Part shown: in pieces, positions 1 to 6,080 of the stretch | Numbering within the stretch: the stretch's first letter is position 1 | How the letters are laid out: every line of letters begins with the position of its first letter | Source of the DNA: Myxococcales bacterium | GTDB taxonomy: Bacteria > Myxococcota > Polyangia > Fen-1088 | Direction of reading: 5' to 3' | Assembly: GCA_003159055.1 (NCBI GenBank) | Contig: PMLH01000616.1 | Location: 2,425-8,504, forward strand | Length of the DNA: 6,080 nt | Notes under the pieces: model-generated | What the model was told of the DNA's origin: nothing | Seen by the model: only the letters and a program-made list of their open reading frames with translations | The model's database searches: none | Made by a program: the position numbers and the translations under genes

Positions 1-1544
1 GGATTCTTGCATTGGGGGCAGATTTCGCGAATCGGTTCGGAATGCCCGCAGTAGTGGCAGAGCAGGTGTCCGCGCAAGCGGTGCAAGGTGAGAGAAACCG
101 CACAGGCTTTGCAACGAACGACATGGCCGCAGGCGTGGCAATGCACGAAAGTCGAAAAGCCACGACGATTGAGGAACAGAATCGTCTGTTCACCGGCGGC
201 CAGAGCTTGATCGACCGCCAACGCCAGCGGAGGGGATAGCAGGCCGTCCGGCCCAGGCGGATGGCGTCGCAAGTCGATCACCTCGACGGGCGGCAAGGGG
301 CGATCGGCGGCGGCTGGATTGGCGCGGACAGGAAGAAGCAGTCGAAAAAAGCGCCCCAGTTGAACGTTGCGGTAGGTTTCCAGGCACGGCGTCGCCGAAC
401 CAAGCACGGCCAGAGCACCACCCTGGCTTGCTCGCATCACGGCCAAATCGCGCGCGTTGTAGCGGAAGCCTTCGTCTTGCTTGAACGAACCGTCGTGTTC
501 TTCGTCGACCACCACGACGGCAAGGTTGCGTACCGGCGCGAATACCCCGGAGCGAGCGCCGACCGCAATGCCTACTTCGCCGCGCCGAAGTCTCCGCCAG
601 GCGGAAGCCCGTTCACCCGCCGGCAAGGCGCTGTGCAAAACTGCGACGTCATCGCCAAACCGAGCTCGAAAACGCGCCGCAAGCTGGGGCGTGAGCGCAA
701 TCTCAGGCACCAGCACAAGCGCGCCGCGGCCGCGACGGCGCGCCTCCGCGATGATGCGCAGGTAGACCTCGGTCTTGCCCGAACCAGTGATCCCCTGCAA
801 AACGAAGGTCGCGTAGCCCTTGTCGAGCGCCGCAAGCAAGGCAGCGTGCGCACCTTCCTGATAAGCGTTGAGTGTTGGCAACGTACCGTCGGTTGCCTCG
901 ACAACAAGCTCGGCCGTGTCGGCAGAGGCACGCCGCCTACGCTTGGTTCCCCGGATGTTCTCGGCCACCTCGACAAAACCGCGTTGTTCGAGGAACTCGA
1001 CGCGAGAGGCCTCGGACGATCCCTTGCGCACGAGCGCGGCGAGACTCAGCGTTCGCGCCTTCTTGAGACGCCCCAAAAGCTCGCGATCGGCGTCGTCGAG
1101 AGCCAGTGCGGACAGCCCGGATGGTACATCCGCCGTGGCGGAGCGAATCCCGAGCCCGGTCAGGCGGAGCCGTCGCGAAGCCGAGGCTCGCTCTCCGCTC
1201 GGTAGCGCGGAGCTCAGTACCTCGCCAAGCGGTGCCAAGTAGTACCCCGCCGCCCATCGACAGAGATCGAGGATAGGCTCGTCAATCGCCGGCCCATCGC
1301 CAACCACCTCGACGATGTCGCGAATGTTCTCGCGCAGCTCTGCATCAATGTTCTCGGCATGCCCCACCACAAATCCCGTGACGGTGCGGTGGCGAAAAGG
1401 CACCAGCACCTGGGTACCGACGGGAATCTCCCCCGACCGATTGCTTCGGTAGGTGTGGATGTCAAAGATCGGCAAGGCAACCGCGACCTCGAGAAAGGTC
1501 TCCTCCTCGCGAGTATCTCTGCGGCTGGCGCGATCAGCGGGCAT
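1..1544 (-). CDS. priA: Primosomal protein N' (PriA), replication-restart helicase, C-terminus cut by window edge
   Basis: PriA is a cytoplasmic superfamily 2 3'-5' DNA helicase that recognises abandoned replication forks and starts reloading of the replicative helicase. From the ATG at 1544 I read 514 uninterrupted codons to the window edge; the family is usually about 730 residues, so roughly 200 C-terminal residues are missing. Visible in order: an N-terminal 3'-end-binding domain (about 16-115, with 'VALPIFDIHTY' and 'GTQVLVPF'), a winged-helix region (about 150-200), Walker A GITGSGKT (251-258), the Walker B box DEEH (347-350), motif III GSATP (382-386), 'FLNRRGF' (457-463), and the inserted zinc-binding domain with eight cysteines in four pairs (469/472, 478/481, 496/499, 509/512). 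No defect is seen. The start lies 11 bases after the sctU stop and has no clear Shine-Dalgarno sequence; the frame stays open a little way upstream, so an earlier non-ATG start is possible. Confidence 0.96.
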   Translation of the reverse strand, partial: MPADRASRRDTREEETFLEVAVALPIFDIHTYRSNRSGEIPVGTQVLVPFRHRTVTGFVVGHAENIDAELRENIRDIVEVVGDGPAIDEPILDLCRWAAGYYLAPLGEVLSSALPSGERASASRRLRLTGLGIRSATADVPSGLSALALDDADRELLGRLKKARTLSLAALVRKGSSEASRVEFLEQRGFVEVAENIRGTKRRRRASADTAELVVEATDGTLPTLNAYQEGAHAALLAALDKGYATFVLQGITGSGKTEVYLRIIAEARRRGRGALVLVPEIALTPQLAARFRARFGDDVAVLHSALPAGERASAWRRLRRGEVGIAVGARSGVFAPVRNLAVVVVDEEHDGSFKQDEGFRYNARDLAVMRASQGGALAVLGSATPCLETYRNVQLGRFFRLLLPVRANPAAADRPLPPVEVIDLRRHPPGPDGLLSPPLALAVDQALAAGEQTILFLNRRGFSTFVHCHACGHVVRCKACAVSLTLHRLRGHLLCHYCGHSEPIREICPQCKN

Positions 1545-1555
1545 GGGTGGGCTCG

Positions 1556-2620
1556 CTAGAGACTCTGGCCCCGTCGAGAGGTTCCGGCCAACCCAAGTTT
1601 GCCATTCGCAAGCAGTTCGGCGACCGGCTCGTACAGTCTTTCAGGGATCTGTTCGCCCTCATCCGACCTTGCCAGTTCCTCAGCCAAGGAAGCACTTACG
1701 ATGACGGGCACGCCCACCTGCGAGGCAGCCGCTTCAATCCGTCTCGCGAAGTGATTCCTGCCTTTGCACACGATGACCGGGGCGCCGGAAAAGGCCGGAT
1801 CGTAGCGTAGTGCTATCGCTGCACAGCCGGGCTCGATCACAACCAAATCAGCCTGCGCCAACTCGGCGAGAGCCTTGGCTTGCGAGAGCTCGAGGTGAAT
1901 GCGTCGTCGTTCAGCCTTGAAAGCAGGATCTCCCTCGGTTTCCCTGTGCTCACGCTTTGCCTCATCGTGGGTCATCCGCAATGTCTTCCGATGGCGGCAG
2001 CGCTTCCACAAGTAGTCTGCAAGGCCGAGGCCCAGCAGGGTGAACGCCAAACCAAGACCGAGGTGCTTCGCTATGACGAAAATGCCGTCAAGAACCCGCG
2101 AGACGTCGCAGACGCTTGACCTGGCGATTGCTGCTGCGGCGGAATAGATGCACGCAGCCGCGACAGCCAAGAGCGCCACGACCTTGGCCAATGCTTGACC
2201 GGTGGCAGCGAGCTTGTCGGTTCCCCAGAGCCGAAGCAGACGCGGGCCGATTCGCTGCGCGTTCGGCAGTAGCAGGTTCGTGCGAACGAGTCCACGCGTC
2301 TGCAGATAGCCGACGGCCAGAGCAGCACCGACGATTGCGACCATGGGTATTGCCAACACCGAGGCAGTCGCGCGCAGTCCGGCGGCGAGCGCGGCGCCGA
2401 CCGAAAGCGGCCCCGCCGAAGCCCTGATGGATTCGCGAAAGAAGAGAACCAGAACACCCACCGCAGCCCTGCCACAAGCGATGAGGGCCGCGCAAGCGGC
2501 GAAGACGACGAATCCCGACATGAGGTCGTGACTGACGGCGACCAGGCCCTCCGACCTCGCTTGCGCCACCTTGCGCGGCGTGGCCTCGTGCGTGCGATTC
2601 TCTTCGGATGAATCAGCCAT
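1556..2620 (-). CDS. sctU: Type III export apparatus switch protein, SctU/FlhB family, without the NPTH autocleavage motif
   Basis: This 354-residue inner-membrane protein belongs to the FlhB/YscU family, which wraps the FliPQR gate and, through its cytoplasmic domain, controls which substrates the type III secretion machine exports. Family signs: a charged N-terminus with 'ATPRKVAQARSEG' (13-25), about four hydrophobic segments (roughly 33-61, 75-105, 143-166, 185-205), the linker 'MTHDEAKREHRETEGDP' (216-232), and a C-terminal domain with 'ALRYDP' (270-275), 'APVIVCKG' (280-287) and 'YEPVAELLA' (330-338). The striking feature is residues 263-266: almost all relatives have Asn-Pro-Thr-His there and self-cleave between Asn and Pro, but here it is Glu-Pro-Gly-Cys. 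The flanking residues (ADLVV before, AAIALRYD after) align well, so the position is secure and cleavage is predicted to be lost. ATG start 14 bases after sctT, with a modest GGA upstream. Whether it serves a flagellum or a non-flagellar system is not settled. Confidence 0.93.
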   Translation of the reverse strand: MADSSEENRTHEATPRKVAQARSEGLVAVSHDLMSGFVVFAACAALIACGRAAVGVLVLFFRESIRASAGPLSVGAALAAGLRATASVLAIPMVAIVGAALAVGYLQTRGLVRTNLLLPNAQRIGPRLLRLWGTDKLAATGQALAKVVALLAVAAACIYSAAAAIARSSVCDVSRVLDGIFVIAKHLGLGLAFTLLGLGLADYLWKRCRHRKTLRMTHDEAKREHRETEGDPAFKAERRRIHLELSQAKALAELAQADLVVIEPGCAAIALRYDPAFSGAPVIVCKGRNHFARRIEAAASQVGVPVIVSASLAEELARSDEGEQIPERLYEPVAELLANGKLGLAGTSRRGQSL

Positions 2621-2634
2621 GCTCGATCCAGCCG

Positions 2635-3417
2635 TTATCGTCCGATCTCGGTTGCCGAGCGCATGAGCGCCAGAAACCCGGCGAGACTGCCTTGCATGGC
2701 TGCTTGAATGCCACCCAAGCCGAGCAGCAGAACCCCAACACCGAGTAGCGCCTTGGCCGGCACGCCCAAGGCATGCACGGGAAGCTGGGGCACTGCGCGG
2801 CCAATGAATCCCAGTACCAGGTCAGCGAGAACAAGCGCGATCAAAACAGGCGCGCACAATCCGAGCGCAGATTCGATGAGTTTGCCCGATGCGAGAATGG
2901 CCCCGCTCGCCATCGCATGCGCGGCGGGAGCAAGCCGGAGTGGCGTGGAAATCGGAATCGCATCGTAGCTGCGCGCGAGTGCTACCGCCACGTGCCCAAT
3001 GCCTCCGATCTCGAGAAAGACAACCGTCGACATGAGAAGCATCGTCGCGGCGAAGGGGCCGCTTCTGCCCGTGCCCACGGGCGCGCCTGCGTCGAGCGCG
3101 CCATACCCGGAGAGTGCGTCGACGAAACCGCCCGCTGCCTCGGCCGCTCGAAACCAGCACGCGCATAGGAAGCCCATCACCACGCCCACGAGAACCTCGC
3201 GTGCCGCCAGGACAGTCCACAACAATAAGGCACCGTCGGGCACCTGTGCCGACAGGATCGGCAGGCACAGTGCAGACAGCGCGACGCCAAAGGCCAAACG
3301 CAACGGCAGAGAGAGCGTTGGGCCTCCGAACGCCGGAATCAGCCACACGAGCGGCAGCGATCGCGCTGCGCCCAAAGCAAGCAAACCGAGGTGTCGCTCA
3401 AGCTCTGCTGGAAGCAC
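2635..3417 (-). CDS. sctT: Type III export gate subunit, SctT/FliR family
   Basis: A very hydrophobic 260-residue protein of the FliR/SctT family. In known systems one copy joins five FliP/SctR and four FliQ/SctS subunits in the helical export gate in the inner membrane. Family marks are 'AAREVLVGVVMGF' (71-83) followed by 'FRAAEAAGGFVD' (89-100), and late in the protein 'ADLVLGFIGRAVPQLPVHALGVPAK' split over 198-222, where the 'A-L-G-RxxPQ' pattern is diagnostic. Several hydrophobic segments are seen (about 12-30, 38-56, 66-88, 122-142, 185-207, 220-240). The start is GTG; I chose it because GAGGG lies a few bases upstream and an in-frame stop lies 24 bases upstream. It begins 7 bases after the sctS stop. 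The loop where FliR carries its plug (about 103-120) is Gly/Ala-rich here. Length is normal for the family. Confidence 0.93.
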   Translation of the reverse strand: MLPAELERHLGLLALGAARSLPLVWLIPAFGGPTLSLPLRLAFGVALSALCLPILSAQVPDGALLLWTVLAAREVLVGVVMGFLCACWFRAAEAAGGFVDALSGYGALDAGAPVGTGRSGPFAATMLLMSTVVFLEIGGIGHVAVALARSYDAIPISTPLRLAPAAHAMASGAILASGKLIESALGLCAPVLIALVLADLVLGFIGRAVPQLPVHALGVPAKALLGVGVLLLGLGGIQAAMQGSLAGFLALMRSATEIGR

Positions 3418-3421
3418 GTGA

Positions 3422-3426
3422 CCCTC
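3422..3426 (-). promoter_or_regulatory. Ribosome binding site deciding the GTG start of sctT
   Basis: GAGGG overlaps the TGA stop of sctS and precedes the sctT GTG by about 4 bases. It supports the GTG at 3417 as the start of sctT. Confidence 0.5.
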
Positions 3427-3700
3427 AACGAACCAACGGAATTAGGGCCAGCAAGGCCTCGGCGAATCGAACCACCTGTGCGCCCAGAAACGGCCCTGAC
3501 ACGAGCACGACCGCAACCACGGCGACGAGCTTCGGCACGAAAGCGATCGAGGGGTCCTGGATCTGCGTCGCGGCCTGCAAGGCGCCGACCACGAGCCCAA
3601 CCACCAGGCCCGCTAGCAGTGGCGGCGCGGAGACCACGAGCACCAGGAGCAGTCCTTCACGCACGACCCGCAACACCATATCTGTCGCAACGCTAGACAT
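3425..3700 (-). CDS. sctS: Type III export gate subunit, SctS/FliQ family
   Basis: A 91-residue protein with two long hydrophobic hairpin segments (about 15-45 and 55-78), matching the usual 88-91 residues of FliQ/SctS. These subunits intercalate with FliP/SctR in the export gate. The family signature is intact: 'REGLLLVLVVSAPPLLAGLVVG' spread over 14-35, then 'LQAATQIQDPSIAFVPK' (41-57), almost identical to the FliQ pattern QAATQI...FVPK. The ATG at 3700 lies inside the last codons of sctR, giving an 8-base overlap that suggests translational coupling. The frame remains open to an ATG at 3829, but that start would add 43 residues unlike the family and overlap sctR by more than 130 bases, so I reject it. 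A second in-frame ATG at codon 8 is a possible but less likely start. Confidence 0.94.
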   Translation of the reverse strand: MSSVATDMVLRVVREGLLLVLVVSAPPLLAGLVVGLVVGALQAATQIQDPSIAFVPKLVAVVAVVLVSGPFLGAQVVRFAEALLALIPLVR

Positions 3701-4409
3701 AGGATTCGACAAGCCCTCGCAACAGAAGCTGCCAACCGTCGGCGAGAACGAAGAGAAGCAGCTTGAATGGCAGGGACACCGAGGTCGGCGACAGCATCTG
3801 CATGCCAAGAGCAGCAAGTAGATTCGCAATCACCAGGTCGACCACCAGGAAAGGAATCAAAAGCAGAAATCCGATTTGGAAAGCCCGGCGCAGCTCGGAA
3901 GTCAGAAATGCCGGCACGACGACCAAGAAGTCACGGTCGGAGATCGAAGCCTGCTCGTCCGAGCTGCGCATACGCCGGGAAAGCCCGTAAAACAGCGACC
4001 GATCTTTGGCAGACGCATGCTTGAGCAAGAATTCCCGCAACGGCTCTTTCGCCTTGATGGCGGCCACACTCAAAGCCTCAAGGCCCTGCCCGCTCAGGAG
4101 TTCCGCGCCGGAGCCGCGCCCCAGGTCATCCGCGGCGGCTTTGAACATTCGCTCGCCGGTCGGTGCCATCACGTAGATGGTCAGAATCAGAGCGAGCCCT
4201 GTGATCACCTGCGACGGTGGGATCTGTGCCGCACCAAACGCGCTCTTCAGGATTGAAAGCACAAGGGCGATCTTCACGAAGCTGGTCATCAACAAGAGCA
4301 CAAAGGGCGCAATCGACAGCGCACCGATCGCCAGGAAGAGCATCACCGGCCGTGACGCCAGTCCGTGCGTCTGGTCGACGGCAGCTGCCAACGCGACGGT
4401 CACGTTCAT
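3693..4409 (-). CDS. sctR: Type III export gate subunit, SctR/FliP family
   Basis: A 238-residue polytopic protein of the FliP/SctR family; five copies form most of the export pore. Visible: a first membrane segment pair with 'APFVLLLMTSFVKIALVLSIL' split over 34-54, 'IPPSQVITGLALILTIYVMAP' split over 63-83, a hydrophilic region (about 85-163) containing 'PLREFLLKHASAKDRSLF' (123-140), 'PAFLTSELRRAFQIGF' (166-181), and the C-terminal signature 'SLPFKLLLFVLADGWQLL' (212-229). The first 20 residues lack a basic n-region followed by a long hydrophobic core, so I see no convincing cleavable signal peptide, unlike FliP; this and the ending 'LVESYV' look more like injectisome SctR. The pore-loop sequence GMQM (202-205) has Gln where FliP commonly has Met. 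Its ATG overlaps the fliO stop (ATGA), with a strong GAGGAGG ribosome binding site. Confidence 0.95.
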   Translation of the reverse strand: MNVTVALAAAVDQTHGLASRPVMLFLAIGALSIAPFVLLLMTSFVKIALVLSILKSAFGAAQIPPSQVITGLALILTIYVMAPTGERMFKAAADDLGRGSGAELLSGQGLEALSVAAIKAKEPLREFLLKHASAKDRSLFYGLSRRMRSSDEQASISDRDFLVVVPAFLTSELRRAFQIGFLLLIPFLVVDLVIANLLAALGMQMLSPTSVSLPFKLLLFVLADGWQLLLRGLVESYV

Positions 4410-4765
4410 GGGCTGCGCCTCCTCAGAATCTTGGACAGCACATCCACGAAGATACTCCCCGTCTTCTCCCCAGCCGGCGACACTTCGGTGATGGCGGCGC
4501 GGTCAACCTCCGCAATCAGGTTCACTGGCCCGTCGCCTACCCCCAACAAGAAGCAACGTCCAGCCGCTTCGACCAGGTAGACCGACCGCCGAGGTTCCAG
4601 GTAGCAGTGCCCGAGCACCCGAACGTTGGCAGACGAAACCCCTACGCCCTTTCGCCCCAGCCAGCGCAGCACCCAATAGGCAACCACACAGACCAGACCA
4701 AGCGAGATGAACGAAACTGCAAGCGGGCTTCCCAAGCCAGGGAGCTCAGAGCCTGAACCACCCAT
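4406..4765 (-). CDS. fliO: FliO-like flagellar biosynthesis/export gate assembly protein
   Basis: A 119-residue protein with a short N-terminus, one membrane segment (about 14-36, 'PLAVSFISLGLVCVVAYWVL') ending in a basic stretch RWLGRKG, then a small beta-rich soluble domain with 'VRVLGHCYLEPRRSVYLVE' (48-66), 'RCFLLGVGDGPVNLIAEVD' (70-88). This pattern of 'v.vl....L.p..svylvev.gr..llGv....v.li.e' is that of FliO, which in flagellated bacteria helps FliP form its pentamer and is not a stable part of the machine. Its place directly before sctR, in the flagellar order OPQR-flhB, supports the call. FliO is not a standard member of injectisome operons, so its pairing with an SctR-like gene is unusual. 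An in-frame TAA 13 bases upstream makes the ATG at 4765 the first possible ATG; there is no Shine-Dalgarno sequence. FliO diverges fast, so identification rests partly on context. Confidence 0.82.
   Translation of the reverse strand: MGGSGSELPGLGSPLAVSFISLGLVCVVAYWVLRWLGRKGVGVSSANVRVLGHCYLEPRRSVYLVEAAGRCFLLGVGDGPVNLIAEVDRAAITEVSPAGEKTGSIFVDVLSKILRRRSP
4418..4424 (-). promoter_or_regulatory. Strong ribosome binding site of sctR
   Basis: GAGGAGG lies within the last codons of fliO, 8 bases before the sctR ATG. It is the best Shine-Dalgarno match among the starts in this cluster and fixes the sctR start. Together with the ATGA stop/start overlap it points to coupled or locally boosted translation of sctR, whose product is needed in five copies per export gate. 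Confidence 0.75.
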
Positions 4766-4867: not shown

Positions 4868-5527
4868 CTAGTCGCCGCCGCGGCTTCGGCTCGACCGCTT
4901 CATGGTCGCGGCCGACTTCGCTGGTGCACGTCCGGCACCACCGTCCTTCTTGGCCTTCGGCGTGGGAGCGGCCTTGGCCTTCGGGGCTTTGGCCGGTTTT
5001 GCCCCGGCCGGAGCGGCGGCCTTCGCCTTGCTCTTGGCCTCGCCACCTTCCTTGGGCTCTTTGCCTTCCTTACCCTCTTTCCCCTTCCCCGGCGTCTTCG
5101 GCGCAGCTTCGTCGCCCTCTGCCGGAATCAGCTCAAGGAACCCCATCGGAGCCGCGTCGCCTGGACGTTGATCCGTCTTCATCAGGCGGGTGTAGCCACC
5201 ATGACGTGCCAGAAAGCGCGGTGCGATCTCCTCGAACAGCTTCAGGACCGCATCGCGGTCACGCACCGTTCGCAAAGCCATGCGCATGGCATGAACCACG
5301 CGGGCGCGCTCCTCGTCGGTGCGCTTGTCCGGCTTCTTGGTCAAGATCGGCCCCAACCGCCGTGCCACCGTGATGACACGTTCAGTCAAGCGACGAATCT
5401 CCTTGGCCTTGACCACGGTGGTCCGAATCCGCTCGTAGGTGAGCAATGCCGCCACCATGTTGGAAAACAACGCCTTGCGGTGGGCGGAGGTCCGGGAAAG
5501 ATGAAGTCCAGCTCTCTTGTGTCGCAT
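4868..5527 (-). CDS. rplQ: 50S ribosomal protein L17 with a long low-complexity C-terminal extension
   Basis: L17 is a core protein of the large ribosomal subunit, near the peptide exit tunnel. Residues 1-136 are typical: 'MRHKRAGLHLSRTSAHRKAL' at the start, 'AKEIRRLTERVIT' (41-53), 'PRFLARHGGYTRLMK' (103-117), and 'RPGDAAPMGFLELIP' (121-135). Compared with the 127-residue E. coli protein, the core has an insertion around 60-80 ('LTKKPDKRTDEERARV', 62-77). Beyond about residue 137 comes an 82-residue tail rich in Lys, Ala, Gly, Pro and Glu, with short repeats (KEGKEGKEPKEGG, 150-162; later AKA/PKA/KPAK units), ending in SSRSRGGD; it should be disordered and very basic towards its end. The frame is unbroken, so I see a true extension. 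rplQ follows rpoA after 85 bases, as in the ribosomal alpha operon, and ends about 25 bases before a hairpin terminator. Only a weak AGG precedes the ATG. Confidence 0.97.
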   Translation of the reverse strand: MRHKRAGLHLSRTSAHRKALFSNMVAALLTYERIRTTVVKAKEIRRLTERVITVARRLGPILTKKPDKRTDEERARVVHAMRMALRTVRDRDAVLKLFEEIAPRFLARHGGYTRLMKTDQRPGDAAPMGFLELIPAEGDEAAPKTPGKGKEGKEGKEPKEGGEAKSKAKAAAPAGAKPAKAPKAKAAPTPKAKKDGGAGRAPAKSAATMKRSSRSRGGD

Positions 5528-5612: not shown

Positions 5613-6080
5613 TTAGGCTTTTTTGGGCGGACCGTCACCCGGCCAGCCCTCCAGCTTCATGCCGAGGGAGAGGCCCATGCCGGCCAAGATTTCTTTGATT
5701 TCCTTGAGCGACTTGCGACCAAAGTTCTTGGTCTTGAGCATGTCGGACTCGGTCTTCTGCACGAGCTCGCCAATGTAGCGAATGTTCGCGTTCTGCAGAC
5801 AGTTCGCGGAACGCACCGACAGCTCCAGATCGTCGACCGACTTCCACAAGTTCTCGTTGAGCTTCTGCTGCTCTTCGGAAACCGTGGCTTCCGGCGCGGG
5901 CTCGGCGCCCTCCTGGAAGTTGATGAAGATGGAGAGCTGATCCTTGAAGATCTTGGCTGCGTAGGCAACCGCGTCCTCCGGCTTCACCGTACCGTTGGTC
6001 CACACTTCGAGCGTCAAGCGATCGTAGTCGGTCTGCTGACCGACGCGCGCATTGGTCACGCTGAAGTTGACCTTGCGAAT
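5613..6080 (-). CDS. rpoA: DNA-directed RNA polymerase alpha subunit, N-terminus cut by window edge
   Basis: The last 155 codons of RpoA, running in from the window edge. RpoA forms the dimer on which RNA polymerase assembles, and its C-terminal domain contacts UP elements and activators. The first visible part is the end of the N-terminal domain ('[19 protein letters not shown]', 4-22; '[16 protein letters not shown]', 22-37). An acidic linker (about 56-78) leads to the C-terminal domain, with '[11 protein letters not shown]' (85-95), '[15 protein letters not shown]' (102-116) and '[14 protein letters not shown]' (119-132). The residues corresponding to E. coli R265, N268, C269, G296, K298 and S299 are all present (R90, N93, C94, G121, K123, S124 of the visible part). 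It ends '[16 protein letters not shown]'. The GTG at 6059 (codon 8 here) is internal, because the conserved sequence continues upstream of it to the edge. Confidence 0.98.

What the first reader, a model, noticed from the sequence alone, without database searches (positions are those of the whole stretch)
1823..1834. Export switch protein with Glu-Pro-Gly-Cys in place of the Asn-Pro-Thr-His autocleavage motif
FlhB/SctU proteins normally cut themselves between Asn and Pro of NPTH by Asn cyclisation; in Yersinia YscU the Asn is residue 263. Here residues 263-266 are EPGC, with well-conserved flanks (ADLVV before, ALRYDP after), and the reading frame is intact on both sides. Glu is not expected to support the cyclisation, so the protein should remain uncleaved and be unable to make the usual early-to-late substrate switch. 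This could mean a machine that exports only one class of substrate, for example one without a needle or hook. The Cys might offer another kind of control, though this is speculation.
Basis: partly seen in the sequence, partly recalled or inferred. Interest (0 to 1): 0.78.

Follow-up and report, generated by a model that had tools for sequence, protein, structure and literature searches.

The report
Secretion switch protein without self-cutting site
In a group of environmental bacteria related to Myxococcus, a protein that normally cuts itself so that a secretion machine can change cargo has lost its cutting site, although the machine's genes are still maintained, which suggests a machine that does not use the usual switch.

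Summary
The SctU/FlhB-type gene (1556-2620, minus strand) reads EPGC at residues 263-266, where the family has its NPTH self-cleavage site. It is not an isolated error: all 8 members found of the window's clade lack the Asn (EPGC, DPGR, DPGK, EPSR, APGI, EPGV, EPGV, DPGV), and Pro is kept in 8 of 8. A neighbouring clade has a new, conserved D-G-D-R. Six genomes with that version also carry a flagellar-type FlhB that keeps NPTH. Sisters keep NPDH or NPEH; other relatives lost the motif separately.

In relatives the machine is a non-flagellar T3SS of myxobacteria whose parts are scattered among housekeeping genes. Its gate genes are under strong purifying selection. The subdomain after the lost site evolves about five times faster, relative to the membrane part, than in NPxH sisters.

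Best reading: SctU stays in one piece and the cleavage-dependent cargo switch is gone. Cleavage and substrates are untested. Published Asp and Gln substitutions of the Asn do not cleave (PMC2615192, passages). The Cys occurs in 1 of 8, so Cys control is unsupported. A single cargo class remains inference.

The parts
1823..1834 (-). EPGC in place of the N-P-x-H self-cleavage site, residues 263-266 of SctU/FlhB
   Evidence: model places it on a turn between strands 259-263 and 267-272
1556..2620 (-). sctU/flhB, 354 aa
   Evidence: PF01312, E 5.3e-73; below the NCBIfam equivalog cut-offs for both SctU and FlhB
1607..1822 (-). Part coding for residues 267-338, the CC subdomain after the lost site, with raised evolutionary rate in clades without the motif
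2635..3417 (-). sctT/fliR, 260 aa
   Evidence: PF01311, E 3.9e-38
3425..3700 (-). sctS/fliQ; ATG at 3700 chosen by the family match and the overlap with fliP
   Evidence: PF01313, E 8.9e-25 in the longer frame 3425-3829
3693..4409 (-). sctR/fliP, 238 aa
   Evidence: PF00813, E 1.3e-64
4406..4765 (-). fliO, 119 aa
   Evidence: PF04347, E 1e-13; TIGR03500 over its cut-off
4868..5527 (-). rplQ (neighbour, conserved linkage)
   Evidence: 76% identical to the gene in L067; L001 copy is Ribosomal_L17
5613..6080 (-). rpoA, 3' part (neighbour, conserved linkage)
   Evidence: tblastn; L001 copy is RNA polymerase alpha
3..1544 (-). priA, cut by the window's end (neighbour, conserved linkage)
   Evidence: PriA_3primeBD and Zn_ribbon_PriA; follows flhB in L067-L069

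Best explanation
This is the SctU/FlhB protein of a non-flagellar, myxobacterial type III export machine, in a lineage that has lost the Asn-Pro self-cleavage for good. The loop between the two strands is kept as a plain tight turn (acidic residue-Pro-Gly in the window's clade, D-G-D-R in a neighbouring clade). SctU therefore stays in one piece. Its membrane part still serves the FliPQR gate, while the cytoplasmic subdomain that takes part in the cargo switch is freed of much of its constraint. The machine probably works in one export state, without the cleavage-dependent early-to-late switch. Shown: loss across the clade, intact genes, selection on the gate, relaxed constraint on the CC subdomain. 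Inferred: no cleavage. Inferred and less sure: a single export state.
For: Loss in 8 of 8 clade members, 100/99 support, tree built without the motif columns; Pro264 in 8 of 8, Gly265 in 7 of 8, acidic 263 in 7 of 8. DG clade: D1 in 43 of 44, R4 in 41 of 44, with synonymous codon changes. Flagellar-type FlhB in the same order keeps NPTH in 10 of 10 readable copies. Gate genes: dN/dS 0.10-0.21, flhB 0.42, part after the motif 0.56, for one pair of genomes. CC/membrane rate ratio 0.29 in NPxH sisters against 1.23, 1.46 and 1.30 in three sets without the motif; 4.5, 5.8 and 5.1 fold in 60 column bootstraps, 5-95% ranges all above 2.9. Asn needed for cleavage: Spa40 substitutions (PMC2615192, passages); EscU chains with Asp or Ala there are held as single 137-residue chains.
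Against: No cleavage assay exists for any member. Some members have Asp-Pro, a bond that can be labile (recalled). CN also speeds up (0.56-1.03 against 0.26), so relaxation is not limited to CC. flhB dN/dS is higher than that of the other gate genes, which also fits slow decay of this one protein. Substrates, needle and ruler are unknown: the needle profile rang in no control and the FliK profile found only one weak match although flagellar-type systems are present. The window's own genome is not held.
Confidence: 0.72

Rival explanations
1. Slow decay: the machine, or SctU in it, is on its way out, and the motif loss is a sign of relaxed selection rather than of a stable switchless machine.
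For: flhB dN/dS 0.42 and 0.56 after the motif; long branches in the window's clade (mean root-to-tip 1.46 against 0.95 in NPxH rows); no FliM/FliN-type protein found in G007-G009 and no FlhA found in G007.
Against: Gate genes dN/dS 0.10-0.21; genes intact with conserved order; the DG clade, where the loss is also old, has a short mean root-to-tip of 0.76 and conserves its new D-G-D-R; ATPase and SctJ present in G007-G009.
Confidence: 0.15
2. Another cleavage chemistry: the protein is still cut at or near this loop, by an Asp/Glu-Pro reaction or by a protease, and the switch works.
For: Acidic residue before Pro in 7 of 8 clade members.
Against: Spa40 with Asp is uncleaved (PMC2615192, passages) and the EscU chain with Asp is held uncut. 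The DG clade has no Pro. The raised CC rate speaks against a kept switch.
Confidence: 0.08
3. The switch is kept without cleavage: uncleaved SctU changes state by binding a partner at the rebuilt loop.
For: The replacement loops are conserved. Passages of PMC2615192 argue that surface features there, rather than the cut itself, matter.
Against: CC, where a partner would be expected to bind, is the least constrained part in these clades.
Confidence: 0.04
4. Sequencing or assembly error, or an isolated mutation.
For: No whole genome is held for the window.
Against: P0001 has EPGC and the other clade members have related Asn-less versions.
Confidence: 0.01

Closest known systems
FlhB/YscU/SctU family (PF01312): self-cleaving export switch proteins such as EscU, Spa40 and FlhB
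   Same: Whole-length homology, membrane part plus cytoplasmic CN and CC subdomains, encoded with fliPQR/sctRST
   Different: The Asn-Pro cleavage site is absent throughout the clade; CC evolves much faster than in NPxH sisters
Myxo non-flagellar T3SS of Abby and Rocha (PMC3459982, passages and section 9) and the needleless T3SS* of M. xanthus (PMC12075869, passages)
   Same: Myxococcota; gate, FlhA/SctV, ATPase and a short SctJ in relatives; FliO present, as reported for Myxococcota T3SS (PMC12403147, passages and section 7)
   Different: Here the parts lie apart among housekeeping genes and SctU lacks the motif.
Laboratory non-cleaving mutants (EscU N262A, HrcU N264A, FlhB N269A)
   Same: No Asn at the site, uncleaved; early substrate (HrpB2, PMC3040844, passages) or low-level export (PMC3189125, passages) remains
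   Different: Those are engineered and impair the system; here the state is natural, shared by a clade and kept

Membership tests
FlhB/SctU (PF01312) | Whole-length match to the family profile | tested here: met
   Residues 7-338, profile 1-333 of 335, E 5.3e-73
FlhB/SctU (PF01312) | Encoded with the FliPQR/SctRST gate | tested here: met
   fliO, fliP, fliQ, fliR directly upstream
FlhB/SctU (PF01312) | N-P-x-H cleavage motif | tested here: not met
   EPGC
FlhB/SctU (PF01312) | Self-cleavage between Asn and Pro | not testable with these tools
   Needs expression; inferred absent
NCBIfam SctU equivalog TIGR01404 or FlhB equivalog TIGR00328 | Score over the curated cut-off | tested here: not met
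   205.3 against 358 and 196.1 against 349.25 bits
Flagellum | FliE, FliM/FliN in the genome | tested here: not met
   None found in G007, G008, G009, the nearest genomes; drafts may be incomplete; the window's own genome is not held
Myxo non-flagellar T3SS | Gate, FlhA/SctV, ATPase and short SctJ | tested here: met
   In relatives: FlhA in 17 of 18 genomes, ATPase over cut-off in 17 of 18, YscJ family in 18 of 18, flagellar copies included. In the window only the gate part is seen
Myxo non-flagellar T3SS | No secretin and no needle | tested here: inconclusive
   Needle family PF09392 in 0 of 18 genomes, but it rang in none of the 14 controls; secretin not searched
Myxo non-flagellar T3SS | Groups with the named Myxo systems in a tree | not tested

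The most novel reading that the evidence does not exclude
A lineage of type III machines has dispensed with the cleavage-dependent specificity switch. SctU is fixed in the uncleaved state, the loop is rebuilt as a conserved new turn (E/D-P-G or D-G-D-R), and the CC subdomain is free to drift or to take another role. The machine then exports one class of cargo all the time, perhaps into the envelope rather than through a needle.
Probability: 0.5. Interest if true: 0.75.

Novelty: new variant of a known kind. Interest (0 to 1): 0.62.

Why it matters
The NPTH site is described as strictly conserved (PMC2615192, abstract passage), and whether the cut is needed for export has been argued from laboratory mutants. 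A natural lineage without the site, whose gate genes stay under selection, with NPDH/NPEH sisters as cleaving controls, would make that question directly testable. The rate shift also points to the part of the protein that depends on the switch: CC is released most, the membrane part is not. Six genomes carry both states, a T3SS copy without the site and a flagellar-type copy with it.

Tried and rejected
Cys control was dropped: Cys in 1 of 8 clade members. Error or isolated mutation was dropped. A reading of the scattered gate as an orphan without ATPase or ring was dropped when the genomes of the order proved to have an unlinked ATPase and a short SctJ. The idea that the genes between fliR and flhB in some NPDH/NPEH relatives encode a ruler lost together with the motif was not borne out: by eye they look like a lipoprotein, an outer-membrane-type protein and a secreted protein (no family search was run on them). 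The idea that the FlhA deletion goes with the motif loss failed: it is also in G004, G005, G006, G014 and G015 and not in the DG clade. The needle search was uninformative, the FliK search nearly so. The viral-contig scan found no relative. One loss against two for the window and DG clades stays open: a smaller tree had them as one clade, 99, but with the NPDH trio P0060, P0061, P0063 added the fork is unresolved. A fold search was not run, so the model was compared with solved structures by sequence only.

Full report
What is there. On the minus strand the window reads rpoA (3' part), rplQ, fliO, fliP, fliQ, fliR, flhB/sctU and priA (rpoA and rplQ named from their L001 copies). The flhB/sctU gene (1556-2620, 354 aa) matches PF01312 over its whole length. 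Residues 263-266 are EPGC, encoded by 1823-1834. The finding is confirmed.

Not isolated. The protein search (26 hits) and its alignment showed that the nearest relatives also lack the Asn while the flanks stay conserved: EPGC, DPGR, DPGK, EPSR, APGI, then DGDR. Three Myxococcales MAG contigs (record titles: isolates fen_1125, fen_1144, fen_1123) carry DGDR at the same locus. In the order of these genomes (18 genomes, 29 matches), 15 T3SS-type copies can be read at the site: 6 DGDR, 1 DDDR, 2 EPGV, 1 DPGV and 5 NPDH or NPEH. The copies of G004, G016 and G017 gave no letters there. Ten flagellar-type copies all have NPTH. G001, G002, G003, G010, G011 and G012 hold one of each kind. The NPTH copies are called flagellar-type because their genomes have a long FliF-type frame, FliM/FliN and FliE; flagellin was not searched.

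Wider survey. In a sample of 282 genomes of the phylum, 149 had a match. I read 133 loci (134 aligned rows): 120 have N-P-x-H (102 NPTH, 6 NPDH, 6 NPSH, 4 NPEH, 2 NPIH), 13 do not (6 DGDR, 1 DDDR, 2 EPGV, 1 DPGV, 1 SPGE, and L160 and L188 with one residue missing), and one row is a piece without the site. Ten of the 13 are the members of the order named above. Printed rows that I did not fetch and rows past the end of the printed list are not counted, nor are the partial loci L024 (same gene as L037), L027, L036 and L038. In the class (317 genomes, 216 with a match) I read the 14 loci L245-L258 (two of these genes had been read before): 10 NPTH, one each NPTQ, NPTR, NPTK, and one without letters. 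A profile search with the clade raised the protein set to 132. With the window (133 rows), 73 have N-P-x-H, 58 do not (3 of them NPTR or NPIR) and 2 have no letters. That set was chosen by similarity and gives no frequency.

History. In a tree of 187 rows the label needs 13 changes, at least 7 of them forced by starred branches, so the motif has been lost more than once among relatives. A careful tree of 60 rows (18 of the 45 DG-clade rows kept; motif columns left out) has the window's clade (8 rows, 100/99), the DG clade (100/98) and three NPDH proteins in an unresolved fork, so the window and DG clades go back to one loss or two. The sister group of NPDH/NPEH proteins (31 rows, 100/99) holds six more rows without the motif (AGGA, TGDDA, AAEA; APGE, APGG, DSGP). 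Their places are unsure; they form two groups of three (94 and 98).

Selection. In the window's clade Pro264 is kept in 8 of 8, Gly265 in 7 of 8, and residue 263 is acidic in 7 of 8; Cys266 is in 1 of 8. In the DG clade D1 is kept in 43 of 44 and R4 in 41 of 44, with synonymous differences among seven genes. For G007/G009 dN/dS is 0.11 (fliP), 0.14 (fliQ), 0.21 (fliR), 0.10 (fliO), 0.13 (priA), 0.42 (flhB) and 0.56 (flhB after the motif). Pairwise dN/dS worked out is about 0.18-0.32 for seven DG-type flhB genes, 0.29-0.41 for the three EPGV/DPGV genes and 0.07-0.18 for six flagellar-type NPTH genes. On a fixed tree, the rate of CC (residues 267-338) over that of the membrane part is 0.29 in 28 NPxH rows, 1.23 in the window's clade, 1.46 in the DG rows and 1.30 in the other six rows without the motif; for CN the figures are 0.26, 0.56, 0.70 and 1.03. 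Sixty column bootstraps give 4.5 (2.9-8.7), 5.8 (3.9-10.6) and 5.1 (3.1-9.0) fold for CC over the NPxH rows. CC is released most, CN partly. The branch leading to each clade shows no such rise (0.26 and 0.00), so the acceleration came after the clades arose.

The machine. In relatives the parts lie apart among housekeeping genes. rpoA-rplQ-fliOPQR-flhB is one part, with priA next in G007-G009 as in the window. In the two loci examined, the second FlhA lies between an Aldedh-family gene and hisD-rplU-rpmA-obg (G008 and G001). FliH and the ATPase lie beside typA/bipA (G008; G001 by clustering). A short SctJ lies beside a DNA polymerase III delta-prime gene and PSP1 (G007, G001). G007-G009, nearest to the window by gate and priA identity, have one FlhB each and no FliE or FliM/FliN found. 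G007 shows no FlhA, which may be a gap in the draft.

Mechanism. Cleavage needs the Asn side chain: Spa40 with Asp, Gln, Ala, Leu or His there is uncleaved (PMC2615192, passages). EscU chains with Asp (3bzr) and Ala (3bzp) are held as single 137-residue chains, while 54-residue EscU chains that end near the site are held separately. S. putrefaciens FlhB cleaves at NPEH, and N269A stops cleavage and filament formation (PMC7771051, passages), so NPEH sisters should cleave. Non-cleaving mutants still export HrpB2 (PMC3040844, passages) or low levels of cargo (PMC3189125, passages). A machine without the site would be expected to export but not to switch. The model of the window's protein (27 sequences, mean pLDDT 76.3, pTM 0.52; block 261-270 at 87) has the site on a turn between two strands.

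Literature. Abby and Rocha describe Myxo systems that lack secretin and needle (PMC3459982, passages and section 9). FliO in Myxococcota T3SS is in PMC12403147 (passages and section 7). The needleless T3SS* of M. xanthus is needed for prey lysis (PMC12075869, passages). PMC9380563 (passages) was looked at and not used. No paper on a natural lineage without the motif showed up in the searches; the library holds open-licence papers only.

Noticed in passing
L101, L100, L097, L098, L109, L110, L096 (FlhA of G008, G009, G014, G015, G006, G004, G005): The second FlhA/SctV lacks about 50 residues in its cytoplasmic part, at profile positions about 404-453, probably most of domain D2 (domain limits recalled). 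It is full length in G001, G002, G003, G010, G012, G013, G017 and G018.
   Followed up: partly
G007, G008, G009: No FliM/FliN/SctQ-type protein was found in the three genomes nearest to the window, against 15 of 15 other genomes of the order. They may run without a sorting platform, or the protein is too divergent.
   Followed up: partly
L085 4580-6746, L074 9028-9843, L078 2246-4351: Between fliR and flhB in some NPDH/NPEH relatives lie genes that look like a lipoprotein, an outer-membrane-type protein and a secreted protein. Two further possible outer-membrane barrels lie near sctJ in L144. They could be envelope partners of the machine.
   Followed up: no
L050 (G186), L160 (G107), L188 (G195): Separate losses of the motif outside the order: SPGE, and two with one residue missing.
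   Followed up: no
P0016: A relative with DSGP and an insertion of about 22 residues just before the site.
   Followed up: no
L252, L254, L255: NPTQ, NPTR and NPTK variants: Asn-Pro kept, His lost.
   Followed up: no
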